A stretch of DNA of 64,000 bases, from NCBI GenBank assembly GCA_003194525.1, contig NBIV01000088.1, positions 62,001 through 126,000 of the forward strand, given 5' to 3'. The notes beneath the pieces are model-generated. The model saw only the letters and a program-made list of their open reading frames with translations, did not search any database and had not been told where the DNA came from. Positions 17,281 through 53,600 of the stretch are shown here, piece after piece; positions within the stretch are counted from its first letter, which is position 1, and each line of letters begins with the position of its first letter. The position numbers and the translations under genes are program-made. This stretch comes from Gracilariopsis chorda. Lineage: Eukaryota; Rhodophyta; Florideophyceae; Gracilariales; Gracilariaceae.

Positions 17281-18966
17281 GTGATTCACGGTCGTGTGTG
17301 GGAAACCTGTACGACGTTGAGTCCTCTGAATGGTTGTATGCAAATGCATCAGTGGAAAGTGGTTGGCCCAGCTGGAGATTTTATCTCACCACGTCACGTT
17401 CCTCCAAACATGAGTGCATTAGATTTCTTTCTTTGGATGTTCCCTATGCAGCATTTGCAGTTCATAGTGAACAGAACAAATTTTCGGTTAGAAAGCAAAG
17501 ACGTTCGGAGGACTTCAGGGGGAGAATTGCTCAAATTCTTTGGAATTCTTAACCTCATGACTCGCATTGAGTTCTCTAACAGACGGGATCTTTGGAGCCT
17601 CGAGCCTTTTTCTAAGTTTATTCCTCAGCCAAATATTGGTCTTGCGATGTCACGGAACAGATTTGAAATGCTTAGAAGTTCAATATGCTTCAGCGGAAAT
17701 GGTGTGACTGAAGAGCAGGGAATCGCACGTTGGTCCTTCGTAACAGATTTTGTGAAGGCTATCAATGACCATCGTCGGTCTTTTGTCACGTCATCACATG
17801 CCTTATGTGTTGACGAAGGAATGTCACGATGGTACGGATTAGGCGGTAATTGGATTGATGTCGGGCTTCCGCACTATACGGCATTAGACAGAAAGCCGAA
17901 AAATGGTCTTGAAATGAAGGCCGTATGTTGTGCACGAAGTGGCATAATGCTGAACATTGAGCTCAATATGGGTGCAAATATTCCGGAACAAGTTTTTGAT
18001 TCTGATAACGCCCATGTAACGGCAGTCTTACTTCGCTTAGTGCAACCATGGTTTGGATCAGGACGGTTGGTATGTGCGGATTCCTTCTTTGCGTCTGTCA
18101 GTACAGCGAAAGCATTACTGGAAAAGGGTTTAAGGTTTACTGGAGTTGTCAAAAATGCTACTCGTGAATATCCGATGACACATCTCTCCGAAACTACTTT
18201 ATCAGACAGGGGAGATTTTGTATCTATGCTATCGAAAGGAAGCATTATCAATAATGATATAATGGCTGTAATGTGGATTGACAGAGAAAGAAGGTATTTC
18301 GTATCAACCTCTGGCACGGTTAGTCCTGGCTGTCCTATTATTCGAGAAAGGTGGAGACGGGAGGGAAATATTTCTAAGAAAGTGGAAATGGAGGTCGCAA
18401 TTCCCGAAGTGTGTGAAGAGTATTACAAAAACTGTTCAATGGTCGATCGCCATAACAGATGCAGACAAGATGATCTGAATCTGGAGAAGAAAATTGAAGT
18501 GAAAGAGTGGTCACTTCGAGTGAACTGCTCTCTTTTATCGATTTGTATTGTGGACGCCTGGAAGTTGTACAAAGCCGCAAATGGAACCCGAAACGTGAAA
18601 AGTCCGCACCACTTCTATTGCCAATTGGCTGATGAACTAATTCAGAATACATGGGATACCACAGGTCTAATGAGCAGAGATGAGCGAGAATGTGAAAATG
18701 ATCATGAGAAGCCAATGTTTGCAGGCACTGGCTTGCATTTAATGCAGACGAATAGAAGGAGAAAAAACAAGGATGGCAAGATTACAAAAGCTTTATATCA
18801 AGGAAGATGCAGTTTCTGCAAAGGTAATACAAAGTCCAAGTTTTTTTGTTCTGGCTGCTATATCAGAAAGGAAAAAGAAGTGTTTATATGTCACACTGGT
18901 ACTAATAGATATTGTTTTATGAAACACATTGAAGAGTGTCACGGTATAATGAAGTTCAGAAGCTGA
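17281..18966 (+). CDS. piggyBac transposase (DDE_Tnp_1_7)
   Basis: This is predicted to cut and paste the element at TTAA targets. The frame runs about 560 residues from a GTG at 17281; the true start may lie upstream. It shows the piggyBac order: PPNMSALDFFLWMFP-type N-terminal region, CVDEGMSRWYG with the first catalytic Asp, LVCADSFFASVSTA with the second, and CSMVDRHNRCRQDD in the region of the third. A Cys-rich C-terminal finger follows (CSFC ... FFCSGC ... CHTGTNRYCFMKHIEECH), as is typical for the family. No interruption is seen within this part, so the catalytic core looks whole. Confidence 0.85.
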   Translation: MIHGRVWETCTTLSPLNGCMQMHQWKVVGPAGDFISPRHVPPNMSALDFFLWMFPMQHLQFIVNRTNFRLESKDVRRTSGGELLKFFGILNLMTRIEFSNRRDLWSLEPFSKFIPQPNIGLAMSRNRFEMLRSSICFSGNGVTEEQGIARWSFVTDFVKAINDHRRSFVTSSHALCVDEGMSRWYGLGGNWIDVGLPHYTALDRKPKNGLEMKAVCCARSGIMLNIELNMGANIPEQVFDSDNAHVTAVLLRLVQPWFGSGRLVCADSFFASVSTAKALLEKGLRFTGVVKNATREYPMTHLSETTLSDRGDFVSMLSKGSIINNDIMAVMWIDRERRYFVSTSGTVSPGCPIIRERWRREGNISKKVEMEVAIPEVCEEYYKNCSMVDRHNRCRQDDLNLEKKIEVKEWSLRVNCSLLSICIVDAWKLYKAANGTRNVKSPHHFYCQLADELIQNTWDTTGLMSRDERECENDHEKPMFAGTGLHLMQTNRRRKNKDGKITKALYQGRCSFCKGNTKSKFFCSGCYIRKEKEVFICHTGTNRYCFMKHIEECHGIMKFRS

Positions 18967-22900: not shown

Positions 22901-25443
22901 AATCCATTCGTTGGTACAAGGCTCGCGCGGAAAACGAGGTGCCTCCGAATCGAATGTACCGCGTTCGCCTTGACGGGGCGGGTGAGAATCGCTCCGATGA
23001 CTTCGTCACATATGCGATGGATAATGGCCTCATCCTTGAATTCACCCCACCATATGCGCATCAATCAAATGACGTCGCGGAGAAGACCATTCAAGATCTT
23101 TGGAAAGTTTCCCGCACCTTCCTGTTTGAGTCCAAGTTACCACAGGAACTCTGGGAAGAGGCAATCTCTCACGCAAAATATCTTAGCAATCGACTACCAA
23201 ACCAAGAGGTAGACATGAGAGTCCCGTACACCCTGTGGTTTAGTGAGAAGCCTGACTTCACCAACCTATTAAAGTTTGGACAGCCAGGACATGCGTTCAT
23301 ATACAGATCAGACACCGCACCGAATAAAAAGCTACTACCCCGGGCACTTCCTGGTAACTTTGTTGGTATACAAAGTCCCCGCACTTTGTACAGGGTATAA
23401 ATCCCATCGACTGATAAAGTAAAAAAGTGCCGCAAGGTAGACTTCAAAGTAAGCAAGGACAAACTACCATCCTTCAAAGACCTGATCGACTTCTCTTCCC
23501 TCCGAAGGCAGCATGCCGAGGTGAACATGGATGAAGATTCCGAGGAACACCTCGATGCATCTCTGGCACACTGTCTCGTACCCTTCTCGCGCTCCGAAGT
23601 TCTTAGGGAGGACGGCAGAGTCCCAAAGAACTTCGACGAAGCGCGGAAGATGAGAGGATGGGCCGAAGCTATCGACAGGGAGTACAATGCCTTGGTAGAA
23701 AGAGGGACATGGAGGCTTATAGACAGGAAGCCTGGGGTGAAACCTTTACCATTCCTTTGGAGGTTCATTGCCAAACTCCTTTGCGAAGACTCACCTCGTA
23801 TTCTACCTAAGGCACGTTGCGTTGCACGGGGCGACATGCAACGCCCCTACATCGATTTTGACCCTGAGAACCTATACGCACCGGTTGCGAGACTCGAAAC
23901 CATCCGCATGGTCTTTGCAAAAGCCGCAGCACAAGGCTTGATCTTAGAGACCATGGATGTGAGCAATGCGTATCTCTATGGTGATCTAGATGAGCCTCTT
24001 ATCATGGAACAACCAACTAATTCCTCTGGATCCTCCTTTGTCCCAGGAAAGGTTTGCTTACTCCTAAAATCGATATATGGAGCGAAACAAGCCGGAAACA
24101 TATGGGACTCATTGATGCACAGCGAGTTCATTCGCTTGGGTTTAAGACAGTCTACCACAGACATTCGGCTACACCTGTACTCGTCCAAGAGTGGTACCCT
24201 AATACTCTATAGTCGTGGACGATATTCTTATGGCCTGCAACTCATATAGTCTACTCCAGGACTTCAAGGCCGAGATGAAAAACCTGTTCAAGGTTAAGCT
24301 CCTTGGTGAGGCAAAGTCATTTGTGGGGCTACAGATCGAGCGAAACGACCAGGGCATTATGGTCACCCAGACTAGTTATATCGATAAGATAATAAAAGAG
24401 AACGGGCTTGAGAACTGTAACGTCTCTCAAACACCCCTTCCTACCAAGGAAGATCTGACCAGCCGCCACGATGAAGAGCGCGCCGTGTCTACAGGAACAC
24501 ACAACCGATACCGGAAGTTGGTAGGTTTTTTGATGTATTTGGCCGTGAACTCCAGGCCTGACATCATGTTTGCAGCCTTGATGCTGGCAAGGCAAGTCCA
24601 TGACCAATGCTTGCGGCATGTTGGACTAGCGAAGAGAGTGTTACGATACCTCAAAGGTACGAATGGTCTTGGCTTGTTCTATCCCTCTAACACTACGGCT
24701 ACAATGGAAGCGTATTGTGACACTGATTGGGCTGGATGCCGCGAAACGCGGAAGTCCACGACGGGAGTTATAATAAAGGTGAACGAAGCACCAATTATGT
24801 GGACGACTAAGAAGCAATCTCTAATTACCCTGTCGTCTGGTGAAGCTGAATATGTGGCTATGTCGTACTGTGGGAAAATTGTGACCGGGATCCGAAGACT
24901 GTTCTGGGAGCTGAGCGCTGAAAAGGTCCTTGACGATGAACTGGACATGTACCCAATATCTACATATTCGGATAGCTCGACTGCGCTGTCGATAGCTAAA
25001 AATCCGAGAGTCTCTGAAAGGAACAAGCACATAGCTCTAAAACATCACCATATCAAAGAGCTCGTTGAGACTGGAGTCATTGACATAAAGTTAATAAGGA
25101 CAGACACGCAAGCCGCTGATATATTTACAAAGTCACTCCCGGTTGAACGATTGAAAGTTCTCACAGTATTATGTGTGCTTAAAAGCAAAACATCCACTTA
25201 ATAAGTATGTGTATCTATATTGCCAAGGTAGCTAACGTTTGAGTTTGTTTTTACTTTTTGTTTTCGAATCCAGATATGTTAGTTTATTAGAGTCGCGAAA
25301 GGGGCCCGTACCCTTTCCTAGATTGCAGATTTTTGCCTATTCGGTTTTTGCTGCAGTACAAGTTTTTAATGGCGGGTACCAAGACATCTAGTCTGTTAGA
25401 CTTATTTCGCAAACTAAGCTGCTATCTTATTTTCGAGGGACGG

Positions 25444-31855: not shown

Positions 31856-34259
31856 CGCTGGGAGTGTGGTGGGTATGCGAATGCGAAGTGATGAGTGTCA
31901 CAACTTCGCCTTTGAACACCCAACATCCGCCACCAACTTGCCTTCAGCGCTCATAGTATGAGGGTTGGACGAGTTGGTGGCGGATGCGACGACCATGTCG
32001 ACTTGAGATATATGGCGGCGGAATGGACTGACGTGTGGCGTTGTGCAGCGCTTCTCGCTGCCGCCCCCCGTAGTCGGTGGCCGTTTCGTACTCTGTGAGC
32101 ACCGGTTGGCGTCGTCAACCGTCGCTCCAATGTGCGCCGCCTCAAATATCTCAAAAATCACAACGGTGCAACTTGGTGAGGCGCAGCTCACACATGGGCC
32201 CACGCGGACACGTGCGGGAACCAGCGGCCATCGGGCCACGGGCGAGCACGCGCTCGGTGTGGCGCTCTCGAGAGTTGTGGACACGCGCCGCTGCGTCGCT
32301 CTCGAGAGATTGCGCGCGTCGCGAGGCATGGGCGCTCAACAGCCTGCACGGGTGCACGTGCGCGGGTGCCGGGATTCGTGGACAGCTGTGCTGCTGTAAG
32401 CCACTCACATCTCCACGTCTTCCGAAGGTACGAAGATCATCTGCTTCGCAGGGCGATGTGCGCACTGGCCGGCCTGATGGCGCGCACGTGAACCACGTGC
32501 GACCCAGTGTGTTTGTACAAGCTGCTTGTCGAACATAACGCCCAAAGTCATCAACCACGCTCCCTCGCCTTGCGGGTCTCGCCAAGCCTGAATGTGCCAT
32601 CTGGTTGTGCCGTTTCGCAATTGCATCACCCGCAGTCGTTCCGATCTACGTTCGACCACCTTGTGCAGAGAATTTATTTCACCCGTCCACAAGCTCACAC
32701 GCACAATACACGCATGCAGCCTTCAAACAAGCTGTCTCCTATTCACGTCGCACTCATTGTCACACAACCTTGCGGGTAAACAAAACTCCAAACCCATACT
32801 CTCCCCACATCCTGAAACAGTTCTTCGGCGCGCACTCTTCCACATCACCAATCGTCCAGCTGCACCCTGGGAGGGGGATTTCGCCGCCATTCATGCCACA
32901 TTCGCCTCCACGTCCGTCCGTTACGGACCCATTTCGAAGAACACGAGTGTTCTCATCCCCGTCGCCCTTCCCCACCCATCCCACAGAAAGGGAAGCCACC
33001 CCTACCTATCTACGCGTCGTCGTTTATGTGTACATCAATGTAAAAACTGCATAGTACCGTTCCAAAAGCGCTGCAACTGCCGCTGCCCATGACAACATGT
33101 CCCACTGCACATCGTCATCACCTGTTCATACCCTATTACTGCCCCCGTCTCCATGCACAACACTGTCGCGCACACATCCCCACGCCGCCATCCTCCAAAC
33201 GCATTCCTCCACACACCCCCGCTTTGTTACTTACATACAATACGTGCATCCAACGCACATCGCCCCGCGTACGTATCTACATAGGCTACCCGTGGGAAAC
33301 AATACAAACTCGCGTCTACGTGCATGTGCACTGCCCTACCACCTCTATCATATCTATTTATTTAGGCTAGTGTACAGTGTCATACCGCCAAGCTGCCACC
33401 CGCCGTCGCCCGCGCCCGCCCGCCATGAACCATTCCTCCCACGAACTGCGCTCTCAAACAGCGCCCAAATCGCGCGCTCTTCCAAAGTTTAAAATAAAAC
33501 GCCGCGCCATATGAAGCCGACAGCGACGAACAATCTCCTCACCCGTCACTTGAAAAACACCAAACCCAATGTCTCTGCAGCTGCCATGTGTGCTGTAAAT
33601 GTGCCCCGAATTGCACTAGTGCCGTGCGCATTCAAGTGTCACGCCCTCGGGGTGGGGGAGGGGGGGGGGGGGGGGGGGGGAAGGGTGGGGGCTGCCGGTG
33701 GGGGCAGGGGCATGGCGGACACATGTGCGCTCACGTCGAGCAACGAAGCATTAAGATTACAAAATGTGAGCACTCACCGCTGGCCGTGCCGCGTCTCTCA
33801 CAGCTTGCAGACACCTTTTTCTCTTTACAACGACCGATACGCATATCGTAACAGCCTACCAACCGTAACCTTTACCATTTCACAGCTTTTTCGCCTGTCG
33901 CCCAACACGTACACGTCAAACTTGCCAGAAGAATGTCTGTCCGCCAAGTTGCAATACGTAGTCAATCAAAACCAGAAGCGCGCGCTCATCAAGGCAAACA
34001 GCAGCAGCAACAGCAGCAGCAACATACACAGACGCAAAACACACACAACACACACGAACGGTTCACATACAATGTTGATAGATATGATTGCTTGGCTTCA
34101 GAAATACAACAAGTAATAGAGAAAAAGGTACACGAACAACGGATTAACTTGCCACAAGCGAAGCAACACACAACAGCAACTCCGACGCATCCGCGTAGCA
34201 AAAGTAGAAAAGGGAGCATGGTGATGCAGAAAAAAACAAGTTAGTGACAACGAAAGAGG
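31856..34259. other. long spacer with homopolymer and CAG tracts
   Basis: This is GC-rich, low-complexity sequence upstream of the GARP gene. It contains a poly-G run at about 33659-33680 and CAG/CAA repeats at about 33997-34020. Open frames here lack family features and overlap one another, so I call none of them genes. Confidence 0.4.
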
Positions 34260-35045
34260 TCAAGTATCCGAGGACGGCGCCTGCAACGCCAACTCTGAAG
34301 ATTTGTTCCACGCATCTGTTACAAATATTGCCAAAGCCATGTAGAACGATACCAAAGCGGCCAGAATACCGGAGATGGCTGAGACAATGGCGGCCCAACG
34401 ATGGTCAAAGACGGCAACGGCATCAAACGTAAACACCATAATGAGCAAGAAGAGAGTAGTACACACGAATCGGTCAATACGAAAGCTGGGGATCCACAGC
34501 ACTGTGGTAGATATGGCAAGCAGACAGTTATACACAAGCATGTCTATGCGGTCGGCCTTGGGCACGGCGGCTATGGATGGGAATGCATGCACCATTTCCA
34601 GCACGGCTTGCGAACACCAGTGAAAGCCATACAGGCCAAAGGTGTTTGCGGCATGAAGGTTGTTCAGCAGGAAATGGTAGATGGCGGCGAGGATCTGTGC
34701 AAAGCCTCCAAGAAAGAGCGCGACGGCGAAGAACAGCGGGTCCGCCGGGGGGCGGGCGGCGAGTTTCGGGATGGAAACTAATGTGATGGCGATTGCGAAT
34801 CCGAATAGACCGAGCGGACTGGGGTTGGCGATGGGGCGGTATGATTTTGATGCGTACGATAGTGGAAGGAGCGGTTCCTTGGGCGAGTTCATGATTGTTG
34901 AAAGAAGCGCGGCTTGAACGCGGGCGTTCTTCAAGCGGAGCAGGACGGAGGGGAGGGGGCGCTTGGTGGCGGGGCGTGGGTTTGCCGATTGGAAGAAGGA
35001 CATGGCGGAGGGAAGTTGGGAAGGAGCGGGACGGAAAGAAGGCAA
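34260..35045 (-). CDS. GPR1/FUN34/YaaH (AceTr) family membrane transporter
   Basis: This is predicted to be an acetate/succinate-type transporter in a cellular membrane. The product shows about six hydrophobic segments and the family signature NPSPLGLFGFA at residues 74-84. A second conserved region runs from GGFAQILAAIYHFLLNN through LHAANTFGLYGFHWCSQ. The reading is 261 residues from the ATG at 35045, 234-247 from nearby starts and 210 from the ATG at 34892. The last gives the length usual for the family, so the true start is uncertain. The substrate is inferred from the family only. The gene is followed on the left by spacer rather than an operon partner. Confidence 0.8.
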   Translation of the reverse strand: MPSFRPAPSQLPSAMSFFQSANPRPATKRPLPSVLLRLKNARVQAALLSTIMNSPKEPLLPLSYASKSYRPIANPSPLGLFGFAIAITLVSIPKLAARPPADPLFFAVALFLGGFAQILAAIYHFLLNNLHAANTFGLYGFHWCSQAVLEMVHAFPSIAAVPKADRIDMLVYNCLLAISTTVLWIPSFRIDRFVCTTLFLLIMVFTFDAVAVFDHRWAAIVSAISGILAALVSFYMALAIFVTDAWNKSSELALQAPSSDT

Positions 35046-36504
35046 GCAAGGAGGGAGGGGGTGGGTGTGGGGACGCGCGAACGGAAAGGGGAAGTGAGAA
35101 AGCGAAAAGAGATCACACGGATTCGAGGAACGAAACGAAAGAAGGAAGGGGAAAAGTGAACGAAAGTGAAGGATAACGGCGAGACGAATCGCGCTATTTG
35201 GACAAGCGAGGGCATTGCGACGGGGGGGGGGGGGGGCTTGAGATAAATGGGCGCGGGGCGTGTGTGTGTGTGTGGGAGGGTGTGTGTGTATCTACAGCTG
35301 CGCGGATGCAGCCGTGCATTGGAATGGCGGAGCAAGCGGCGCGGGGTTTGAGCGTTTGAGCGCGACAAACTGCCAGCGTAGCACTCTTTTCCTTCAGAAA
35401 AAAAGCGGTGGGTGGCGCACTTCGCACAGCGAGCGCGCGGCGGAGGGGTGCCGCGGCGCTTGTCGGAGCGCGCTGCTATGCTACTTTTGCTCGATGAAAG
35501 TTGGGCACAGGCGGCGCGGCGTGCAAGCAAGCGCGTGTGCGGACGCGTGCCTGAAACAGGTGCAGTCTTGTTTGCCGCCATTCAGCGCGCCCTTGCGCCC
35601 CGTCTTGCGCTCGACGCGCTCGTGCTGCCGGTGCTGAGCGCAGAGCACCGCCACCTGCGGGCGCCTCGCTTCGGCGCTGTTCAAGTCACCAAGCGTAAGC
35701 GCGCCCGTTGTTCTCGCCTATTTCAGGCAGCCCCTGCCGCCAACCGTTCGGCGCAGATCAGTTTCGTCCTGCGTAACGCGCGCCGTACGACAGCGCGTGA
35801 TCCCCACCCCTGCGCAGCCGCACCTATCTACTTGCTGCCACGCGGCAGCGCCTTAAAAAAGGCTCCCTCAAACAACGGCGCTCAAACAGATACAGTATGA
35901 TGAAGAGAGGCAGCTTGGCCCGTCGAGAAGGTGCCGCCCGCGGCTGTCTCCCCACCCACCGCACAAATAAAGCGTCCGACGCGGCTGAAAGTGGAAAGTC
36001 TGCACGCCCACATACGCAACTAAAACTATGCACTTCTTCCCTGCAACTGCGCCCCGTGTCTTGCTTGAGAACAACTTACGGTTGGAATACGATGCTTGTG
36101 CTGCTTGCTGCTGCCCGTCCCGCCCTCCTCCGCCACCTTTTCGCCCACTTCATTCGTAGTTGAGGTGCATCCGCCACCCGCCGCCGAACACCCCCCTACG
36201 TGCTGTACTTGTCACATTGTAATAGTAGCCACCGTGCTGCCGTGGCCACCTGTACGCGCCGTACCATTCCGAACGTGCGCGTCCCCCACACCACACACCG
36301 CGCTCCACCACCTCGCCCCACCTCAGATCACATCGCCGCTGTCATAATACTCTGCGAACCATTTTTCTTCATCTGAACACACTTTGCCCACTTTGTCCCA
36401 GGAACAACTCGCACTACCCTTGTACGTAAGACTCAACCACCCACCAACATCCCATCCACTCCCAACCCCCGCTTCCCCCTCATCTACCCCCCTTACCAGA
36501 AACA
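35046..36504. other. spacer between divergent transporter and UBL-FKBP genes
   Basis: This GC- and C-rich sequence holds both upstream regions. A poly-G run lies at about 35221-35236. A plus-strand open frame at 35412-35900 has biased composition and no motif and is not called. The CT-rich stretch before 36505 is probably the 5' leader of the UBL-FKBP gene. Confidence 0.4.
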
Positions 36505-38049
36505 ATGTCTATCACCATCAAAGCAAAATGCTTCAACGGCCAGTCCTACGATCTCACCTTCGACTCCGCCGCCCCCACCGTCAACGACCTGCAATCCAGC
36601 ATTTCATCCGCCTCCGGCATCACGCCTGACCGCCAGACAATTCTCTTCAAGGGCCAAGTCCTCGAACCCGGATCCACTATTTCCGACTACTCCCTCGCCG
36701 ACGGCCACACCATAAGCGTTGTACGCCGCATCGGAAAGTCTGCGCCAAAGTCTTCAACAAAGCCTCCACCCGCATCCAAACCCCTGGCCGCTCCCCCTTC
36801 ATCTGCAACTCCCGCAAACTCAGACCTCGCCGCAGACCCCTCCGCCCCGCAGCCGCCCTCTCTGGAGGACATGATGCGCTCCCTGAACATGGGTGCCGGC
36901 GCTGCACCGCCTTTAGGCGGTGGCGCTGCGGGCGTCCCGCCCATGCCGGATCTCAGCGCCCTGCTGGGTGGCGCAGATCCTTCCACACTCGGTGCAGCCG
37001 GCGGAGCTGCTGCGGGAGGTGCCGGAGGTCTGGAGCAGCTCTTTGCGCAGCTCCCACAGATGATGAACGGTTTCTTCAATACTCCCATGTTGCAGGACTA
37101 CCTCAACGACCCCGAAAAGCAGGAACAAAGTCGCGACGCCATTCTGAACAACCCGTACATGAAGAAGCTCTTGGAGAGCGATCCGGAGTTTAAAAAGGTT
37201 GTTAGTGATCCGAGTAAATGGCGTGACAGTATGGATGCTGCCAAGAAGCTTTTCAAAGTGTCTGAGAAACAGGCTGATGACGATGCGGACGGAGACAACG
37301 CTTCCCGATCGCTTGGTGCTGCCGCTTCCAAGTTGAGTACTTCGACTAGAAAAACTGCCGCAGACATGGCGCCACCTGGAATTAGTATTAACAAACTGTC
37401 AGAGTCGTACGGGCATGCACTGGGGCAGTCACTCATCAATTCGGGACTCGGTTTGGACCCAGAGCTTGTTGTAAAAGGGCTCAAGAGCGCTGTGGAGGGA
37501 AAGGCGTTCCCCATGTCGCTGCCAGACTATGAACGATCCATGGCAACTATGCAGACTATTGCGTCGGAGTTTCTGACGAAGGCCAACTTGGAGGACGCCG
37601 ACAACTTTTTCGAGGAGATTAAGCAGTCTAGCGACGTTGTAGTGCTGGAGGAGGGTAAGATTGCGTATGAAAAGGGCGACGAAGCGGTGGATACTTCGCT
37701 ACCGGCTGCTGAACAGAAGTCGACCGTTTTGATTATTGTTACTGCTAGATTACTGGATGGGCGGCACTTCTTCACGTGCCCTGCCGCTGATGAGTCGGGG
37801 GAGTCTGTGCACCCGCTGACGCTGGAATTGGAGAGTGCGCCTGGTGCGTTGGCTAAGGGCATTGTGGGAATGCATGAGAATGAATCGAGACTGCTTTATG
37901 TGCACCCCACGGCATGTGACGGGATGTCAGATATGTTTGGCGACTTGCTGCCACCTAATGCGTTGCTGATATTCGACCTGCAGCTGGTAAGCGCGAATGC
38001 GCCGGAAGAAGATAACGTTGGTGAAGCGTACTACAACAAAGCGAGCTAG
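36505..38049 (+). CDS. UBL-STI1-FKBP fusion protein
   Basis: This 514-residue protein combines three module types. Residues 1-75 form a ubiquitin-like domain (MSITIKAKCFNG ... TILFKGQVLEPGSTI) without a terminal di-glycine. After a P/A/G-rich linker, residues about 190-245 resemble an STI1 repeat (MLQDYLNDPEKQEQS, ILNNPYMKKLLESDPEFKK), as in ubiquilins. Residues about 304-390 resemble the helical dimerization domain of Mip/FkpA-type FKBPs (SYGHALGQSL, PELVVKGLKSAVEGKAF). Residues about 391-496 resemble the FKBP fold (ARLLDGRHF, LLPPNALLIFDLQLV). The FKBP pocket looks eroded: the DSS after VF, the GW motif and the AYG tyrosine are absent at the aligned places. A cytosolic ubiquitin-linked chaperone adaptor is a reasonable inference, while prolyl isomerase activity is doubtful. 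Confidence 0.75.
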   Translation: MSITIKAKCFNGQSYDLTFDSAAPTVNDLQSSISSASGITPDRQTILFKGQVLEPGSTISDYSLADGHTISVVRRIGKSAPKSSTKPPPASKPLAAPPSSATPANSDLAADPSAPQPPSLEDMMRSLNMGAGAAPPLGGGAAGVPPMPDLSALLGGADPSTLGAAGGAAAGGAGGLEQLFAQLPQMMNGFFNTPMLQDYLNDPEKQEQSRDAILNNPYMKKLLESDPEFKKVVSDPSKWRDSMDAAKKLFKVSEKQADDDADGDNASRSLGAAASKLSTSTRKTAADMAPPGISINKLSESYGHALGQSLINSGLGLDPELVVKGLKSAVEGKAFPMSLPDYERSMATMQTIASEFLTKANLEDADNFFEEIKQSSDVVVLEEGKIAYEKGDEAVDTSLPAAEQKSTVLIIVTARLLDGRHFFTCPAADESGESVHPLTLELESAPGALAKGIVGMHENESRLLYVHPTACDGMSDMFGDLLPPNALLIFDLQLVSANAPEEDNVGEAYYNKAS

Positions 38050-38680
38050 GGATAGCTTTTAGCATCTGATAGACGAGTGGGCGATAGATGGCGAGGTTTT
38101 GGCGGTCTTGGGGCGGTGGTGGATAGGGGTGGCGTGCGATTGGGAAAGCCTGCGAGCTGAGGAACAAGGAGTACCAATGTTACCAGGGTATCTAATAAAC
38201 ACAAGTGCTTGAAGGTTTCGGTACCGTTGGTACCGACGGACCGTAGATACGTCGAGAGCTGTGGGGGAAAACGTAAGAAGGCCTTTGCAGCTTTTTTCCT
38301 TTTTTTTCGGTTCTTTTTCATGCACGCGAAAGAGCATGCGTCCGTGGAGCTGTCGGCGTGCCATTGCCCAGTGGAACCCCCCCCCCTTGCGCCTCCCCGC
38401 TTTCTGTCCGGTCGCGTTGGTGTGTGTCCCCAGCTGCAGCTCCACGACCGCTCGAACCCTCACCCCCCCTTTTCTTCTCGAGCTCCACTTCTTCTTTATG
38501 CCCCTCACTCCGCGCTACCCCCTTCTTGCTTAAGCCTCCCTTCCTCCCCTGTGCCTTGGCCAGAGACCCGCCCCCCTCGTTTCCCCTCCACGGCTCCCCT
38601 CCCCCCTGCGTGCGTTTTTCGTTTCGTCCCCCCTTTTCACCATCCCCGCTCCGCAACCCGCCCCGCTTTACCCTCCTCAC
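38050..38680. other. spacer upstream of PP2A-A gene
   Basis: This lies between two plus-strand genes. From about 38370 it is strongly C/T-rich, which probably marks the promoter and leader of the PP2A-A gene. No further gene is seen. Confidence 0.45.
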
Positions 38681-40744
38681 ATGACGACCGCCGTCGCGCA
38701 GGAAGAGGAGCTTGACGCCTCGCTCTACCCGATCGCGGTCCTTCTCGACGAGCTCAAGCACGAAGACATTCAACTGCGTCTCAATGCCACGCGCCGCATC
38801 AAAACCATTGCCGATGCCCTCGGCCCCGAGCGCACGCGCGGCGAGTTGCTACCCTTCATAACCGAGACCGTTGACGATGAAGACGAGGTGCTGCTAACTC
38901 TTGCCGAAGAGCTAGGCGACTTTCTGGAAGAAGTTGGCGGCCCCCCGTATTCGGCGGTGCTTGTGCAGCCCCTCGAGACTCTCGCCAACGCCGAGGAAAC
39001 CGTTGTGCGTGAGAAGGCTGTCGAGTCTCTGTGCAATCTTTCCAACCAGGTGCAGCTCCAGTCGGAGGACGACGCCCGTTCGCTTCATGTGGATCATCTG
39101 TTCCCGCTTGCGCAGCGCTTGGCCAATGGCGATTGGTTCACTTCGCGAATGTCAGCGTGTTCCCTTTTCGCCGACCTCTATAGTCGCATCCCCGATGATC
39201 ACACCGACCTTCGCACCGAGATTCTCGATTTGTACAAATGCTTGGTGCATGATTCCACCCCCATGGTTCGTCGTGCCGCTGCTTCAAATATTGGCAACTT
39301 TGCTACCGCCGTCTACCAACACTCGCCTACACTTGTCTGCGAGCAGTTACTGCCCTTGTTTGCCGATCTTGTTGAGGACGATCAGGATAGCGTTAGACTT
39401 ATTATCGTCGAGAACGCACCAGTTTTCGCGGCACTCTTGAACCCGATAGACACTTTGGAAGTTGCTGATACCTCAATGTCTTCTGAATCCCAAGAGCCTA
39501 ACGGATTCGCATCATCTAATACGCCTCTCAATTGCAACCCCGACCGTCAAGCTGACAGTTCAGATGCCCGTCCTAACGCCGCCGAGAGACCGTCCAACCT
39601 TCCCTCTGCCCCGACTGGAAACGGACCTCTGTCACATCACCGTACTGCTACAGAGCGTATCATTGATATGGTGCGCGGCTTTTCTGCTGACAAATCGTGG
39701 CGCGTCCGCTACATGGTTGCAACACGTCTCAACGATCTGTGCGATGCCTTGGGTCCTGAAGCTACCAGAACTGACCTTCTACACGCTTACATGACTGTAC
39801 TCCAAGATAATGAGCCTGAAGTACGAACTGCCGCTGCGTTTAAAGTGGCAGATATTGTCAAGAAACTTGTCGCATTGCCGCCGAAACCCGGCTCTTCTTC
39901 AGGTTCTGATCATGTCATTTACGACATCTTTCCGAACGTCGCACAGCTCGTTACAGACAGTTCGCAACACGTCCGTGCAGCTCTGGCTTCTAATATTATG
40001 GGATTAGCACCTGTGCTTGGCGTCGAAGTTACAGTAAGCCATTTGGTCGAGATTGTGCTTTCGTTGCTTAAGGATGAATACCCGGAAGTTCGATTGAACG
40101 TCATCACACATTTGGACAAGGTTAGCTTTATCATGTCTATCGAAAAGCTGAGTAGTGAGCTTCTTCCTGCAATTGTGGACCTTGCCGAGGACAAGAACTG
40201 GAGGGTGAGACTCGCCATCATTGAGAGAATTCCTCTTCTTGCGAGACAGCTTGGCAAGGACTTCTTTGAAGAGAACAACAAACTCGGTGATCTCTGTATC
40301 AGCTGGCTAGGAGACTGCGTGTTTTCAATCCGCGAAGCTGCTATTAAGAATCTCAGAGCGCTTACAGAGATTTTTGGTTTGGAATGGGCAAAGAAGTATA
40401 TAGTCCCTCAAGTGACAGACATGTACGACGAGTCTGGAAACTACCTTCTGCGAATGACTGCACTGCATGCAATTGGAATCCTCTCTGAGGTTCTCGGTCC
40501 CGAGACTGTTGAGGAATCATTTTTGCCTATTGTGACTGAGAGGGCATCGAGGGATCCTGTGCCTAACGTACGGTTTTGCTCGGCTAAAACTCTCAATCGG
40601 GTTATTCCTTATGTCAGGGAAGATGTCAGGGAGAGCAAGATTCGCCCATGTTTGATGACACTGGTTGATTCATCCGAGAAGGACCAAGACGTTAATTACT
40701 TCGCGCAACAAGCCCTTTTGAAACTAAGTTCTTGTCCGACGTAA
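38681..40744 (+). CDS. PP2A 65-kDa scaffold subunit A (HEAT repeats)
   Basis: This is the structural subunit that bridges the catalytic and regulatory subunits of protein phosphatase 2A. The 687-residue product is made of HEAT repeats with the family's recurring motifs: LYPIAVLLDELKHEDIQLRL near the start, EEVGGPPYSAVLVQPLE, DKSWRVRYMVA, NWRVRLAIIERIPLLA and SGNYLLRMTALHAIG. The usual length is about 590 residues. The excess is mainly an insert of about 60 residues near 255-320, rich in S, N, P and D, between two helices just before DKSWRVRYMVA. The insert is in frame and lacks GT-AG intron features that I could see, so it is probably a real loop. Confidence 0.92.
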   Translation: MTTAVAQEEELDASLYPIAVLLDELKHEDIQLRLNATRRIKTIADALGPERTRGELLPFITETVDDEDEVLLTLAEELGDFLEEVGGPPYSAVLVQPLETLANAEETVVREKAVESLCNLSNQVQLQSEDDARSLHVDHLFPLAQRLANGDWFTSRMSACSLFADLYSRIPDDHTDLRTEILDLYKCLVHDSTPMVRRAAASNIGNFATAVYQHSPTLVCEQLLPLFADLVEDDQDSVRLIIVENAPVFAALLNPIDTLEVADTSMSSESQEPNGFASSNTPLNCNPDRQADSSDARPNAAERPSNLPSAPTGNGPLSHHRTATERIIDMVRGFSADKSWRVRYMVATRLNDLCDALGPEATRTDLLHAYMTVLQDNEPEVRTAAAFKVADIVKKLVALPPKPGSSSGSDHVIYDIFPNVAQLVTDSSQHVRAALASNIMGLAPVLGVEVTVSHLVEIVLSLLKDEYPEVRLNVITHLDKVSFIMSIEKLSSELLPAIVDLAEDKNWRVRLAIIERIPLLARQLGKDFFEENNKLGDLCISWLGDCVFSIREAAIKNLRALTEIFGLEWAKKYIVPQVTDMYDESGNYLLRMTALHAIGILSEVLGPETVEESFLPIVTERASRDPVPNVRFCSAKTLNRVIPYVREDVRESKIRPCLMTLVDSSEKDQDVNYFAQQALLKLSSCPT

Positions 40745-41258
40745 GATGCAGGGAGTACCTAAATTAAACTGGAATCAGTGTATAGCATAACAAGAACCAA
40801 TACCCATATCTTCGCCCTAAAGTGAAGCAAACCGTGAGATCGTGCTGAAAGAAACTTGCAGGGGCGTTCTTTATCTTACAGTATACCTGTTTCTCGCGTG
40901 GCACCAACATTTCGTGGAGCATTCCGAATCGTGAGCAAACACTTAGCAGTAAATCTGACTCTCAATAGCGTTCACATAAGTCACGTTCTACTCTCTTTAT
41001 ACGCAGCTCTTCACTGCTCAACAAGGGGTGTGTCTGCGCGCAGATCGACTCGTACTGAAGTGGGACAAGCACAATCAGAAAGCCTTGCAAAAGTTTGAGA
41101 GATGAAAAGCTATATCTACTTTTACATTCCGAAACAGCGGGGTAGAGAAATTGTGGAGCTGTGTGTGATAGATCAGTTCTTGCTCGAGTGTGACTGGTAC
41201 TTTGCAAAAAAATGAGCATAAGCAGGGTATAGGTCCGCAGTTTGGACGACAGCTTGAA
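40745..41258. other. convergent spacer between PP2A-A and DHCR24
   Basis: Both neighbours end here. Nothing else is recognised. Confidence 0.4.
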
Positions 41259-44463: not shown

Positions 44464-47175
44464 TCAAGCCACCGCCGAAAGCTCGGTGGCGAGGTGCTGC
44501 ACCGCGTACTGCAAGATACGGTCAATGAACTCATACGGGGTGTAGCCCTGCAGCGCCGTCTGGTGAAAGATCGCCGTGGCGGGCGTCATCCCAGGTAGCG
44601 AGTTGGCTTCGATCACCACTGTCTCCGCCCTCTCGCCATAGACACGGACGAATGCGTCGATGCGGGCGTAGCCCTCGATCCCGAGCACTCTGGCCGCTCG
44701 CTCCAGCTCAGCCTGTACCTGACGCGACAGCCTCGCACTTGTCTCCTTGTCCGAAGCGAAGCGCGCCGGTGTCACATTCAGTCCCTCTCCCGCGAGGAAC
44801 TTCTCATCCAGAGAAAGAATCCCCGCACTGGCCACCGACTCAGATGGTTCGAACATTTCGTATACAGGGCCATTCCTTCCGTGCTTGGTCAGCAGACCGC
44901 CAGTCACCTCAAGAAAATGGTCTGCCCCGTTGGCGCCGATCAGCTCTTCTACAAGGAAGACTGATTTGACCGGGAACTCTTCGCCAGGTGCCAGTGCTAA
45001 CACCCGTACTTGCTCCGCCAGCAACGTCATGTCTTCGCGGAAGATTTGCCGCGCAAATGCCACTAGCTGGGCACGATCGGTAATCTTCTTCACCGCAGAG
45101 CTGCACCCGTCGTCTACCGGTTTCGCGATCAGTGGATATGAAAACCGGGTCTCAATCTTGTCCAGGACAGCAACCGCGTTGCTCACCCACTCGCTTTTCT
45201 CCACGAGTGCGTGCCTCGCTACTGCAAACCCAGACTGCCGAAGTAGCTTAATCGTCTCGAACTTGTCTATTGTGATTTGGGCACTCTTCGGCCGCGATCC
45301 ATTGTACGGTATACCGACTGCTTCCAATCGCGCTTGCACATGCCCGTCCTCCCCTGGACGCCCATGCAGCGCAATAAAAGCGACATCCGTTCGCTCTTCT
45401 AAGCCTTCGAACGTGAGTTCCAGAGGCCTGAAGATCGTTTGTTGGGCATACTTCTTCGTCAGCGCTGCTGCCCGCTTAATCGTCTCTTGAGTTACCGAGT
45501 GCACTGGATCCTTCAGTGCTTTGTGTATTTTCTCTCGGATGTCGTCAGCATTGTCCTTTAGTAGCAGATTGGTAGGAATCTGGTACAACTCTATCCCATT
45601 TGGATTTCCCGTAAGGAACACAGGGACAGGCGCGTATTTTGCGGAAGACGAGAGCTTCTCAAAAACATTGCGACCGCTTTCGACAGAGATGTGACGCTCC
45701 GTTGAATAGCCACCAAGCAGGACTGCAACACGCGTTTTGCTACTCTCCGCGTGCTCCAGATTTGTGATGCAGTCATCAAGATTGCTGAGCAGTCGCTCGA
45801 CATTAATAACATGCTTACCGTTTCGAAGACGGGCGGCTAACGAGGTGCGGATGATGAGCGTAAGAAACTGAGACGGGTTCAGACCGATTTCGGCCGCTTG
45901 ATGAAAGAAGAACGACGATGGCAGCATACCAGAAGTAGTGTTGGGATCGTTGAGGAAAATTTCTCCGCTAGGGGTTAAGAAACCGTCAAGACGTGCATAG
46001 ACCTCAAAGTGCAGTTTCTCAAAAAGTTGACAGCAGGCTGACTGAATCTTGCGAAGAGTAACGTTGTCCACAGAGCTCGGAGTAATTTTGCGTGAGAGAC
46101 CGGGCAGATACTTGGCACGATAGTCCAGAATAGGTAGACTCTTCCTGATCTCGGTCGGGGGAAGCGCCAGTGGTCTACGGTCCTCCCCTTCAATGACGAT
46201 GCAACTGAACTCAAGACCTTCAATGAACTGCTCGAATATAACTACCGACTCACTGGAAAGCGCTCGAAGAGTGATCGGTTTCGTTTGCGAGTCAAGCCAC
46301 TTCCAGAGCCCATCCGGAAGATAGAAACAGGCCTTTTCACCCCCAGCAGAAGCCTCTACAGGCAGCCCAATTCCAGAACGAATATCAGTGAGGGCGGCGA
46401 GATACTGATGCTTGCCTTCGTCAGACATATCGAGCCAGTCGGCTGGTGCGAGTTGTTCTACGAAGAAAGAGCGATTGACAGCGAGCTCGAAATCCTGCAG
46501 CGCTGGCTCTTGCAGGACGGTCACGCCTATGGATGAACCCTGGTGTGCCGACTTGACCACGAAACGAGTGCCCAGCTTTCTGCACAAGTGATTGAGGAGA
46601 ATCGGACGGTCTGTAGATTGCCATTGAGCCCAAGAGATTTCATGATGATCTGGACTCGCGAAACCGCAGTCTCTTAGAAGCGCCCGCTGGAGGCTTTTGT
46701 CAATGCCAACGGCTGAAGGAAATATGCCTGAACCAGTATAAGGTATGGCATACCATTCAAGAAGACCTTGCAGGCTGCCATCTTCGCCATGCAGACCATG
46801 CAACGTGACAAAAGCGAGGTCGAAATGGTCGGAAAACTGGTGCGGGTACAACGGGACGCCGACCTCGTGGGCCATGCGTTGCCAGTCTGCGTCCGAAATG
46901 TGGCCGAGAGATTCAATATAGAGCTGGAATTCATGGTTCATGCGCGGCAGATGTGTGACAGGAGGGTAGAAATCGCGAATAGAGCCCTTGTAGATAAACG
47001 ACCAGCGGAGCAAAATGAAGCGGCCTAGGCTGTCCACAAATATTGGGACTGGTTCAAAGAGCGACTTATTGAGGTTGTCGTATACGGTTCGGCCACCCGC
47101 GAAGGAGACCTCACGCTCACGGGATGGGCCGCCGAAGAAGATGCCGACACGAAGCCGACTGCTGTTTACGGTCAT
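44464..47175 (-). CDS. tandem D-alanine--D-alanine ligase (two Ddl units fused)
   Basis: This ATP-grasp enzyme is predicted to join two D-alanines. The 903-residue product contains two Ddl copies in tandem. Copy 1, about residues 1-470, has RVGIFFGGPSREREVS, LHGLHGEDGSLQGLLE and YARLDGFLTPSGEIFLNDPN. Copy 2, about 483-903, has RVAVLLGGYSTERHISVESG, ALHGRPGEDGHVQARLE and YARIDAFVRV followed by IEANSLPGMTPAT. Plant nuclear genomes encode a similar tandem Ddl, linked in mosses to plastid peptidoglycan. No obvious transit peptide is visible at the chosen start. The role in this organism is open, because red-algal plastids are not known to have a peptidoglycan wall. Confidence 0.85.
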   Translation of the reverse strand: MTVNSSRLRVGIFFGGPSREREVSFAGGRTVYDNLNKSLFEPVPIFVDSLGRFILLRWSFIYKGSIRDFYPPVTHLPRMNHEFQLYIESLGHISDADWQRMAHEVGVPLYPHQFSDHFDLAFVTLHGLHGEDGSLQGLLEWYAIPYTGSGIFPSAVGIDKSLQRALLRDCGFASPDHHEISWAQWQSTDRPILLNHLCRKLGTRFVVKSAHQGSSIGVTVLQEPALQDFELAVNRSFFVEQLAPADWLDMSDEGKHQYLAALTDIRSGIGLPVEASAGGEKACFYLPDGLWKWLDSQTKPITLRALSSESVVIFEQFIEGLEFSCIVIEGEDRRPLALPPTEIRKSLPILDYRAKYLPGLSRKITPSSVDNVTLRKIQSACCQLFEKLHFEVYARLDGFLTPSGEIFLNDPNTTSGMLPSSFFFHQAAEIGLNPSQFLTLIIRTSLAARLRNGKHVINVERLLSNLDDCITNLEHAESSKTRVAVLLGGYSTERHISVESGRNVFEKLSSSAKYAPVPVFLTGNPNGIELYQIPTNLLLKDNADDIREKIHKALKDPVHSVTQETIKRAAALTKKYAQQTIFRPLELTFEGLEERTDVAFIALHGRPGEDGHVQARLEAVGIPYNGSRPKSAQITIDKFETIKLLRQSGFAVARHALVEKSEWVSNAVAVLDKIETRFSYPLIAKPVDDGCSSAVKKITDRAQLVAFARQIFREDMTLLAEQVRVLALAPGEEFPVKSVFLVEELIGANGADHFLEVTGGLLTKHGRNGPVYEMFEPSESVASAGILSLDEKFLAGEGLNVTPARFASDKETSARLSRQVQAELERAARVLGIEGYARIDAFVRVYGERAETVVIEANSLPGMTPATAIFHQTALQGYTPYEFIDRILQYAVQHLATELSAVA

Positions 47176-50686: not shown

Positions 50687-53600
50687 CTACTTTGTCAAGC
50701 CACAAAGTAATGTCAGTCTTCTGAGCTTGTCAAAGACAACAGGCTTAGTAAATATGTCGGCAGCTTGCACATCAGTCCTTATTGACTTCACGTCAATTAT
50801 CTTGGTCTCCAGCAGCTCTTTTATGTAGTGATGTTTTAGAGAAATATGCTTGTTCCTTTCCGAGACCTTCGGACTCTTCACGATCGACAAAGCAGTCGAA
50901 CTGTCCGTTGCTATGGATATACGGTACATTTGAGGTTCATCCTCCAGGACTGATTCGTTGCGTAGTTCCCAGAATATTCTACGCAACCACATTAGTGTTT
51001 TTCCACAATATGACAGTGCAATGTACCCCGCCTCTCCAGACGACAGAGCAACAAGAGTTCGCTTCTTTGTCGTCCACATTACAGGTGCTTCGTTCACCTT
51101 TATTAATAATCCTGTCGTAGACTTTCTCGTCTCACGACAACCGGCCCAATCTGAGTCACAGTATGCCTCCATTGGTGCTGTGTTATTAGCGGGAAAGAAC
51201 AAGCAAAGACCCTTTGTACCCTTCAAGTATCTCAGTACTCTTTTCGCATGCCCAACATGCCTCATGCATGGATCATGGACCTGCCTTGCCAGCATTGAAG
51301 CGGCAAACATGATGTCTGGCCTCGATGAGACGGCTAAGTACATGAAACTTCCTACCAGTTTCCGGTAGCGGTCATGTACGCCTGATGGAATACGCCGTTC
51401 GTCCTCTCGAGGAGCTGTGATGTCACATTGTGACGGCAATGGAGTTCGAACAACGTTGGAGTTAACCAGACCATTTTCCAGCAGTATCTTGTCAATATAC
51501 CTGCTCTGTTGTACCTTTATTCCGTTCTTGTCCCTCGTTATGTCAAATCCAACGAAACGTTTCGCCTCTCCAAGGACCTTAACCTTAAAGAGGTGCTGCA
51601 TCTCTGTCTTGAAGTCTTCCAGAAGAGACCGGGAATTACAAGATGTCAGTAAGTCATCAACGACCACTACGATGGCCAAGGTTCCGCTGTTGGACTTGTA
51701 TATATATAGTCGGCTATCGGTGCTCGACTGCTTGAATCCCAAGCGCAATAGCTCATTTTGCATGAGAGATCCCCATATTTGACCGGCTTGTTTTGCGCCG
51801 TATATTGACTTTAGAAGCAAGCATACCTTTCCAGGAACAAATGAGGATCCAGATGCGTTTTGGGGTTGTTCCATGATTAGAGGCTCGTCTAGATCACCGT
51901 ACAGGTATGCATTGCTAATATCCATAGTCTCTAGTACCAAGCCCTGAGCTGCGGCCTTTGCCAACAAAAGACGAATGGTTTCAAGACGGGCAACCGGGGC
52001 GTACAAGTTGTCTGGGTCGTAATCCAAGTACGGGCGTTGCAGGTCGCCCCGTGCTACGCAACGCGCTTTTGGAAGGATACGCGGAGGGTCGGAGCTTAAT
52101 AATTTTGCTAAGAACCTCCATAAGAATGGCAATGGTTTCATGCCAGGTTCTCTATCGATCAGCTTCCAAGTTCCTCTTTCCACCAACGCATCGTACTCTC
52201 TGTCGATTGCTTCTGCCCATCCTGGCATCACTCTGGCTTCTTCAAAGCTCTTGGGGACTCTGCCATCATCCCCGAGGTCTTTGGAGCGTGAGTGTGCGAT
52301 AAGGCAATGAGCAAGAGAAGCGTCTAGATGGTCTTCATCTTCTTCACCCATAATTTTCTCGGCTTCGTATCGTCTGAGAGACGAGAAGTCCATAAGGTCT
52401 TTGGTTGAAGGGAGGAACTCCTTGGTAACCTTGAAATCTGCCTCGCGGCACTTTATTACCTTTCCCATGGATGTGATGTATATCCTATACAGTGTCCGCG
52501 GGCTTTGCATCCCCACGAAGTGTCCAGGAATAGCGCGTGGTAGGAACTTCTTATTTGTGACGGTTTCAGGCCTGTATATGAACGCGTGGCCTTCTTGCCC
52601 GAACTTCCGTAAGTTTGTGAAGTCCGGTTTTCGTCCGAACCATAAGGTGTAAGGAACCTTCATTCCTGCTCGATGATTTGGTAGGCGATTTCTCAAGTAG
52701 TTTGCGTGTGAAATGGCTTCTTCCCATAGCTCATGCGGTAGCTTGGAGGCGAACAGGAATGTTCTAGCCATCTTCCACAAGTCTTGGATGACTTTCTCTG
52801 CTACACCGTTCGATTGGTGTGCGTACGGTGGGGTGAACTCTAGTACTATACCATTTTCCATCGCGTATGAGACGAAATCGTCTGACCTATTCTCACCCGC
52901 TCCGTCAAGGCGAACGCGGTACATTAGGTTGGGAGGTAGTTCGGTTTCCGCGCGAGCCTTGTACCAGCGGACAGATTCAAAGAATTGTTTCTTCTTACTT
53001 AGAAAGTATATTGAGCTTGCCCTTGTGTTGTCGTCAATGAGGACTTGCATATACTTCGATCCTTGTAAAGAGGTTGGGGTTATGGGTCCAGTGAGGTCGG
53101 TGTGCGTTAACTCCAAAGGTCTCTGCACTACCGAGTTTGATCGTTGAAGTGGAGCACGCTTGGTGCCGGCGTCAATGCACGGAGTGCATATGACGTTGTC
53201 GACTTCATATGGGGAGAGTTTAGGTACCCCTTGACATAAATCAATGCATTTCAAGAGTTTCTCTCTTCCAGGGTGTCCGAGTTTCTCGTGCCAATCTTTG
53301 GCTCTGTTGTCAGGTGCATGTGTTGCAGCTTGTACCTGTGGTGGTGATACGGGGCTCGGTAGGGGATAGAGTCCGTCCTTCGGGGTGGAGTGTTGTATGA
53401 CTTGGCCCGTTGTGCGGTCTTTAATTACGAATCCGTTTGAGTATTGCACCTCGACGTAATTCACCAGGACAGATAAGGATACCAAGTTAGAGTCGAAGGT
53501 TGGGGTATGTTTGGCGGGTAACATGAGTCCGGTTCCTAAGGGTAGCTTTATTTTTCCACAGCCTACGATCTCTGACTGGTGGTCGCAAGTGTTTACGGTT

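What the first reader, a model, noticed from the sequence alone, without database searches (positions are those of the whole stretch)
36505..38049. Ubiquitin-like, STI1 and Mip-type FKBP domains fused in one protein with an eroded FKBP site
Seen: a UBL start, an STI1-like segment, a helical FKBP N-domain and an FKBP-like fold in one uninterrupted 514-codon frame. Known: ubiquilins are UBL-STI1-UBA, while Mip/FkpA FKBPs are FKBP_N-FKBP; I know of no standard protein that joins them. The aromatic and acidic residues that form the FKBP pocket (FDSS, GW, AYG) look absent. Inference: a ubiquitin- or proteasome-linked chaperone adaptor in which a pseudo-FKBP replaces the UBA domain.
Basis: partly seen in the sequence, partly recalled or inferred. 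Interest (0 to 1): 0.75.

Follow-up and report, generated by a model that had tools for sequence, protein, structure and literature searches.

The report
Chlamydial chaperone fused to ubiquitin-like protein
One gene in a probably algal genome joins the front half of a ubiquilin, a protein that carries damaged proteins to the cell's shredder, to a folding-helper domain that most resembles one from chlamydia bacteria, which suggests that a captured bacterial chaperone was rewired into the cell's protein-disposal system.

Summary
Window 36505-38049(+) is one 514-codon frame with ubiquitin-like, ubiquilin-type STI1, FKBP_N and FKBP_C domains, all above Pfam cut-offs, and no UBA match. By ungapped alignment the FKBP pocket has lost the equivalents of FKBP12 Y26, D37, W59 and Y82.

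It hits 138 of 151 Chlamydiota genomes (best E 4.3e-33); the best among 711 genomes of four other phyla is 4.3e-11. A mixture-model tree groups it with 32 chlamydial rows against 46 others at 100/100. It scores 159.7 bits on a chlamydial profile, 66.4 on a non-chlamydial one.

Loss of D37 and W59 is already the rule in the chlamydial Mips compared; Y26V and Y82D are new here. Best reading: a chlamydial dimeric chaperone was fused behind a UBL-STI1 module and now forms the probably non-catalytic, client-holding, dimerising end of a UBA-less ubiquilin-like adaptor. The origin is well supported; the mechanism is inference. No eukaryotic collection could be searched, so spread across algae is unknown.

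The parts
36505..38049 (+). whole open frame, 514 aa (P0001)
   Evidence: longest open frame in 200 base shuffles 278 codons
36511..36729 (+). ubiquitin-like domain (residues 3-75); no C-terminal Gly-Gly
   Evidence: Pfam ubiquitin 1.2e-11; ubiquitin fold in the model, pLDDT 69-85, TMt about 0.9 to ubiquitin variants; sequence
36730..37059 (+). Ala/Pro/Gly-rich linker (residues 76-185), predicted mostly disordered
   Evidence: composition of residues 80-175; pLDDT < 50 at 76-110 and 128-189
37060..37251 (+). ubiquilin-type STI1 domain (residues 186-249)
   Evidence: Pfam UBQLN1 1.2e-7 above cut-off; helical, pLDDT 80-91 at residues 201-250 but 44-68 at 181-200
37381..38016 (+). chlamydial Mip homology region (residues 293-504)
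37393..37668 (+). FKBP_N, the dimerisation domain in Mip proteins (residues 297-388)
   Evidence: Pfam 2e-8; half tree
37708..37989 (+). FKBP_C domain with altered pocket (residues 402-495)
   Evidence: Pfam 2e-5
37738..37740 (+). V412 at the place of FKBP12 Tyr26
   Evidence: Tyr in 32 of 32 chlamydial and 95 of 95 other rows
37771..37773 (+). F423 at the place of FKBP12 Asp37 (ungapped reading; MAFFT sets an Asp of the insert there)
   Evidence: Gly in 29 of 32 chlamydial rows, Asp in 95 of 95 others
37849..37851 (+). L449 at the place of FKBP12 Trp59
   Evidence: Phe or Leu in 32 of 32 chlamydial rows, Trp in 90 of 95 others
37918..37920 (+). D472 at the place of FKBP12 Tyr82
   Evidence: Tyr in 30 and Phe in 2 of 32 chlamydial rows, Tyr in 94 of 95 others

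Best explanation
A eukaryote (probably an alga) acquired a chlamydial mip gene and fused it, without its signal peptide, behind the UBL and STI1 parts of a ubiquilin-like gene. The protein most likely works as a UBA-less, ubiquilin-like quality-control adaptor: the UBL docks on the proteasome or another UBL receptor, the STI1 groove holds hydrophobic stretches of clients, the Mip-derived FKBP_N domain makes the protein a V-shaped dimer, and the altered FKBP domain holds clients or a partner without (or with little) prolyl isomerase activity. Having no UBA, it cannot use a UBA to bind ubiquitin chains or to close on its own UBL as Dsk2 does, so its clients would be recognised through STI1 and the FKBP cup. 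Shown: domains, their order, chlamydial kinship of the back half, pocket substitutions. Inferred: the transfer direction (from the conserved chlamydial locus and the eukaryotic front half), dimerisation, UBL docking, loss of catalysis.
For: Domains. Chlamydial origin: the top 3 of 76 loci lie in Chlamydiota (E 5e-30 to 9e-28; next 7e-12); 138 of 151 Chlamydiota genomes hit, 135 of them at 2.9e-16 or better, against 106 of 711 genomes in four other phyla with best 4.3e-11; tree 100/100; 159.7 against 66.4 bits on the two profiles, while 63 held-out non-chlamydial rows all score at least 104 bits lower on the chlamydial profile than on the other; 20 chlamydia-only against 4 other-only columns, where non-chlamydial control rows have at most 5 chlamydia-only columns. 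Direction: of 33 chlamydial loci (two being the same locus) 28 hold aspS and 28 hold trmL near mip, and no UBL-STI1 is joined to mip in the three loci read frame by frame; the front half, searched in 116 Chlamydiota genomes, gave only weak UBL-only matches in 3. Function: the N-domain of Mip-like proteins dimerises (PMC4114562, passages); ubiquilins shuttle clients and Dsk2 closes through its end domains (PMC13336661, abstract and section headings); the window protein's branch is about 3.2 times the median end branch in FKBP_N but about 8.2 times in FKBP_C (1.11/0.35 and 2.31/0.28, quick trees), as expected if catalysis was released first.
Against: No second eukaryotic copy could be sought, so the fusion could be private to this genome or under decay. 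The window protein is a long branch (1.63). Its place inside or beside Chlamydiae is unresolved (Chlamydiae alone as one clade not rejected, p-AU 0.239), and the one non-chlamydial placement tested, chosen after the tree was seen, was rejected only narrowly (p-AU 0.041). In the FKBP_N-only tree the smallest starred set holding it also takes in 4 non-chlamydial rows. The chlamydial rows used in tree, profile and pocket counts are the 30 best matches plus three, so they lean towards likeness; the other rows are best matches too. Cyanobacterial and eukaryotic FKBPs were not sampled. The FKBP half folded alone without an alignment failed (pLDDT 36.9), so the good FKBP model leans on the alignment. 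D37 and W59 are lost in chlamydial Mips too, one of which is reported active. No experiment links it to proteasomes.
Confidence: 0.55

Rival explanations
1. Same chlamydial fusion, but the FKBP domain is still a working prolyl isomerase with a chlamydia-style pocket, so the protein is a UBL-guided folding enzyme and not a pseudo-enzyme.
For: The chlamydial Mips compared lack D37 and W59 as a rule yet a Chlamydia Mip is reported active (title only, reference list of PMC4376002). F36 and F99 are kept.
Against: Val at Y26, Asp at Y82 and Pro at I56 occur in none of the 32 chlamydial or 95 other rows (Tyr26 in all 127; Tyr82 in 124, Phe in 3; Ala at V55 does occur, in 3 chlamydial rows); two inserts lie beside the pocket; FKBP_C has the longer branch relative to its median.
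Confidence: 0.2
2. Mip-type FKBP of other origin (mitochondrial, plastid or general eukaryotic) that resembles chlamydial Mips through long-branch attraction or convergence.
For: The row is long (1.63); published doubts about other chlamydial gene transfers (PMC4374161, abstract). Eukaryotic and cyanobacterial FKBPs were not in the tree.
Against: Kinship shows in raw similarity and profile scores, which tree artefacts do not create, in 20 shared columns, and under a mixture model meant to resist such attraction.
Confidence: 0.08
3. Two genes, or an alternative transcript, read as one: a UBL-STI1 protein and a separate FKBP starting at Met288 just before the chlamydial homology.
For: Met288 lies at the junction; the stretch before it (residues 251-290) has no Pfam match and low pLDDT.
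Against: Frame continuous, no stop, no step in codon third-position composition; by eye no signal peptide follows Met288.
Confidence: 0.07
4. Decaying fusion without function.
For: Strong divergence of FKBP_C.
Against: 514 intact codons; core motifs such as LLPPNALLIFDLQLVSANAP are kept; a confident model of the FKBP half, though it leans on the alignment.
Confidence: 0.07

Closest known systems
Ubiquilin / Dsk2 (UBL-STI1-UBA shuttle factors)
   Same: N-terminal UBL, low-complexity linker, ubiquilin-type STI1
   Different: no UBA; a chlamydial Mip module stands at the C-terminal end
Chlamydial Mip (gene near aspS and trmL; CT541 in Chlamydia, recalled)
   Same: FKBP_N plus FKBP_C over about 210 residues, up to 41% identity, D37/W59 changes and 20 shared columns
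   Different: no signal peptide (by eye), fused to UBL-STI1, Y26V and Y82D, inserts of 6 and 4 residues near the pocket
E. coli FklB and FkpA (Mip-type FKBPs)
   Same: same two domains in the same order
   Different: 24-25% identity; full classical pocket; no UBL
Rad23
   Same: UBL at the N-terminus and, from general knowledge, an STI1-like domain
   Different: scores 30.2 bits against a cut-off of 207.3; no UBA
Non-catalytic eukaryotic FKBPs with TPR (AIP, FKBP38-like; recalled)
   Same: FKBP domain used as scaffold in chaperone work
   Different: no TPR match here, UBL present, FKBP part of Mip type

Membership tests
Ubiquilin/Dsk2 | N-terminal UBL | tested here: met
   Pfam ubiquitin 1.2e-11
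Ubiquilin/Dsk2 | STI1 of ubiquilin type | tested here: met
   PF23195 31.7 bits, cut-off 27
Ubiquilin/Dsk2 | C-terminal UBA | tested here: not met
   no UBA match with limit E 10
Mip-type FKBP | FKBP_N followed by FKBP_C | tested here: met
Mip-type FKBP | classical FKBP pocket (Y26, D37, W59, Y82) | tested here: not met
   D37 lost or displaced
Mip-type FKBP | dimer through the N-domain | not testable with these tools
   only monomer prediction offered
Mip-type FKBP | prolyl isomerase activity | not testable with these tools
   needs an assay
Chlamydial Mip clade (FKBP half only) | groups with chlamydial Mips against other bacterial Mips | tested here: met
   100/100; profile scores
Chlamydial Mip clade (FKBP half only) | signal peptide and setting near aspS and trmL | tested here: not met
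   UBL starts at residue 3, signal peptide judged by eye only; window neighbours are eukaryotic genes; expected after transfer and fusion
Rad23 | NCBIfam rad23 cut-off | tested here: not met
   30.2 of 207.3 bits

The most novel reading that the evidence does not exclude
An algal lineage captured a chlamydial dimeric chaperone and, by fusing it to UBL-STI1, made a new class of proteasome-shuttle protein in which a bacterial pseudo-isomerase took over the client-binding and dimerising role of the UBA end; the fusion is old and shared among red algae, and so is a chimeric (eukaryote plus chlamydia) gene that records a chlamydial contribution outside the plastid.
Probability: 0.3. Interest if true: 0.8.

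Novelty: new variant of a known kind. Interest (0 to 1): 0.62.

Why it matters
Whether chlamydiae shaped early algae is a long dispute, fought largely over plastid functions (for: PMC2376095 and PMC2394758, passages and abstract starts; against: PMC4374161, abstract). A chlamydial domain welded to a UBL-STI1 module cannot be a contaminating bacterial contig, would sit in the protein-disposal system instead of the plastid, and offers a datable event: find which algae share the fusion. It also gives a natural experiment in how an FKBP loses its pocket step by step: D37 and W59 changed in Chlamydiae, Y26 and Y82 changed after that.

Tried and rejected
Rejected: ordinary ubiquilin (no UBA), Rad23, FKBP half from another bacterial phylum, chance open frame. 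Whole-protein scans of viral and genome contigs gave no relatives; viral contigs with the FKBP alignment gave none. The STI1 part alone against PDB sequences gave nothing useful. The FKBP half folded without an alignment failed.

Literature: searches for the architecture and for chlamydia with alga and FKBP or chlamydial Mip listed no paper that, from its title and the start of its abstract, describes this fusion; several lists were capped (20 of 297, 20 of 74, 20 of 22, 12 of 103, 15 of 48). Term searches in the main texts of PMC2376095, PMC2490706 and PMC2394758 found no FKBP, peptidyl or Mip; supplements were not read. PMC6629376 names a peptidyl-prolyl isomerase orthogroup (OG0001938) among gene-transfer candidates of Cyanidiales red algae, and says that phylogenies with Chlamydiae as sisters were set aside as endosymbiotic transfers (passages); whether that orthogroup is related to this gene was not followed and could lessen the novelty.

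Rows dropped: of 142 loci, L068 and L076 gave no phmmer hit; 15 of the other 140 were dropped before as duplicates or partial (L001 and L002 were replaced by their translated proteins), leaving 125 loci plus E. coli FklB and FkpA plus the window protein, 128 rows. The tree used all 32 chlamydial rows, 44 hand-picked of the 93 other loci, and both E. coli proteins. Chlamydial loci are the 30 best matches plus 3, less one duplicate.

Full report
OBSERVATION. The frame 36505-38049(+) encodes 514 residues without a stop. Two hundred base shuffles of 34000-41000 gave at most 278 open codons. Pfam finds four domains above gathering score: ubiquitin 3-75 (44.7 bits, cut-off 25.4), UBQLN1 186-249 (31.7, 27), FKBP_N 297-388 (35.4, 22) and FKBP_C 402-495 (25.3, 21.1), and no UBA at a limit of E 10. 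In phmmer against PDB sequences with the last 227 residues, the best E-values are those of a wheat FKBP with several FKBP domains (1.1e-8); the Mip chains next in the list (from 1.9e-7) align collinearly over residues 9-210 of the 227. Codon third-position composition shows no step at the junction, and the next gene has a similar 5'-to-3' fall. The neighbours are eukaryotic: a PP2A-A-like HEAT protein, an mRNA capping triphosphatase, a TLC-domain protein, and copia, Helitron and DDE_Tnp_1_7 elements.

STRUCTURE. AlphaFold2 with 22 bacterial rows that cover only the FKBP half gave block-mean pLDDT of 84-96 over residues 291-500 except about 75 at 421-440, 80-91 for residues 201-250 of the STI1 part (44-68 at 181-200), 69-85 for residues 1-70 of the UBL, and low values in between. 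Foldseek's ten best PDB matches are full-length Mip, Pseudomonas FkbA and FkpA (E 3.2e-12 to 7.5e-10, TMt 0.54-0.65, rmsd 5.0-7.5, so the two domains sit at different angles); a single LpMIP FKBP domain reaches TMt 0.83 and ubiquitin variants about 0.9. The UBL had no alignment rows, so its fold is independent support. The FKBP fold is not: folded alone without an alignment it failed (pLDDT 36.9).

ORIGIN OF THE BACK HALF. Three stand out at E 5e-30 to 9e-28, then a gap to 7e-12. Two are titled Chlamydiia and Chlamydiales; the third, titled Verrucomicrobia, lies in the same phylum draw as the others. In all three aspS lies upstream of mip; a trmL-like gene follows in L003 and L005 but was not found in L004. 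Of 33 chlamydial loci (two being the same locus) 28 hold aspS and 28 hold trmL. Across whole genomes the FKBP half hits 138 of 151 Chlamydiota, 135 of them at 2.9e-16 or better, best 4.3e-33, against 26 of 145 in the Verrucomicrobiota draw (best 1.8e-10), 44 of 299 in the Pseudomonadota draw (4.3e-11), 26 of 148 in the Bacteroidota draw (9.8e-10) and 10 of 119 in the Planctomycetota draw (5.5e-10). Phylum names are those of the locus that centred each draw. Cyanobacteria could not be reached, for want of a handle.

A tree of 79 rows under LG+C20 (PMSF) puts the window protein with 32 chlamydial rows against 46 others at 100/100; inside that group its place is weak (88/79), its own branch is long (1.63), and the bootstrap had not fully settled. 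Chlamydiae alone as one clade appear in 10% of 200 bootstrap trees but are not rejected (p-AU 0.239), so sister or nested stays open; placing the protein with Pseudomonas Mips, a test chosen after the tree was seen, is rejected narrowly (p-AU 0.041). By halves (quick trees, few columns), FKBP_C gives the same grouping (SH-aLRT 100); for FKBP_N the smallest starred set (96) holds the protein, all 32 chlamydial rows and four others. Profiles: 159.7 bits on 32 chlamydial rows, 66.4 on 95 others and 66.4 on a random 32 of these; no other one of 464 window frames and 200 shuffles passed 2.9 bits; 63 held-out other rows all scored at least 104 bits lower on the chlamydial profile than on that of the random 32. 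Columns: 20 shared with chlamydial rows only, 4 with others only; the 95 other rows have at most 5 chlamydia-only columns, 1.4 on average; chlamydial rows have 19 or more, 25.5 on average. Both row sets are best matches to the window protein, not random draws.

DIRECTION. The front half is a ubiquilin-type, eukaryotic module; searched in 116 Chlamydiota genomes it gave 3 with weak matches, confined to the UBL (best 2.4e-6). The chlamydial gene is widespread in its phylum and mostly keeps its setting. Transfer from a chlamydia into the eukaryote, with loss of the signal peptide and fusion, is the simplest account; it is inferred.

POCKET. Of 95 non-chlamydial rows D37 is Asp in 95, W59 Trp in 90, Y82 Tyr in 94, Y26 Tyr in 95. 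Of 32 chlamydial rows D37 is Gly in 29 (Ala, Asp and Ser in one each), W59 is Phe in 25 and Leu in 7, Y26 is Tyr in 32, Y82 is Tyr in 30 and Phe in 2. The window protein has V, F, L and D at Y26, D37, W59 and Y82 by ungapped reading; the MAFFT alignment sets an Asp from an insert at D37. Two inserts, of 6 and 4 residues relative to chlamydial Mips, lie near the pocket. P446 stands at I56, whose backbone NH binds ligand in FKBP12 (recalled); a one-residue shift would make it Ala instead. So the change came in two steps, the first before the transfer. Since a Chlamydia Mip is reported active (title in a reference list), only the second step argues for loss of activity. The window branch is about 3.2 times the median in FKBP_N and 8.2 times in FKBP_C, and Pfam FKBP_C scores run 108-118 (two E. 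coli), 72-83 (two chlamydial) and 25 here, against 76-77, 50-69 and 35 for FKBP_N: the supposed catalytic half has changed most.

MECHANISM (inference). Mip-like proteins dimerise through the N-domain and bind substrate with the C-domain (PMC4114562, passages). Ubiquilins shuttle ubiquitinated clients, and Dsk2 closes by contact of its two end domains, the closed state being tuned by the disordered regions and STI1 (PMC13336661, abstract). A protein with UBL and STI1 but no UBA, and a Mip dimeriser at its end, should have a free UBL and two STI1 grooves per dimer, and would choose clients by hydrophobic surface and not by ubiquitin chains. I hold the origin at about 0.9, the adaptor role at about 0.5 and loss of catalysis at about 0.6.

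KNOWN AND NEW. Term searches in the main texts of three lists of chlamydia-like plant and algal genes found no FKBP or Mip (supplements not read). Literature searches (several lists capped) listed no paper that, from title and abstract start, describes the fusion; the library lacks most subscription papers. One paper names a transferred peptidyl-prolyl isomerase in Cyanidiales (PMC6629376, passage) whose relation to this gene is unknown to me. Published trees have disputed other chlamydial transfers under better models (PMC4374161, abstract), which is why a mixture model, profiles and column counts were used here. Chlamydiae living in an alga have been reported (dinoflagellate; PMC11317633, abstract).

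Noticed in passing
window 44464-47175 (-): A 903-aa tandem double D-Ala-D-Ala ligase lies 6.4 kb from the fusion gene. Matches running across both ligase units occur in 2 of 50 Chlamydiota, 5 of 16 chosen Chlamydiota and 1 of 120 Pseudomonadota genomes (the best score). PMC2376095 lists a D-Ala-D-Ala ligase among chlamydia-derived plant genes (passage).
   Followed up: partly
Joint transfer or coincidence is open.
   Followed up: partly
L151 (G035) and L152 (G076): Ubiquitin-like stretches in two Chlamydiota genomes, weak matches to the UBL only.
   Followed up: no
window 12513-15137 (-), 17338-18966 (+), 21706-23400 (+), 50687-54673 (-), 60261-62948 (+): Mobile elements: copia-type polyproteins, a DDE_Tnp_1_7 transposase and a Helitron-like helicase.
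   Followed up: no
window 36505-40744 (+): Third-position G+C falls from 5' to 3' in the PP2A-A-like gene and, less evenly, in the fusion gene, where C gives way to G along the frame.
   Followed up: no
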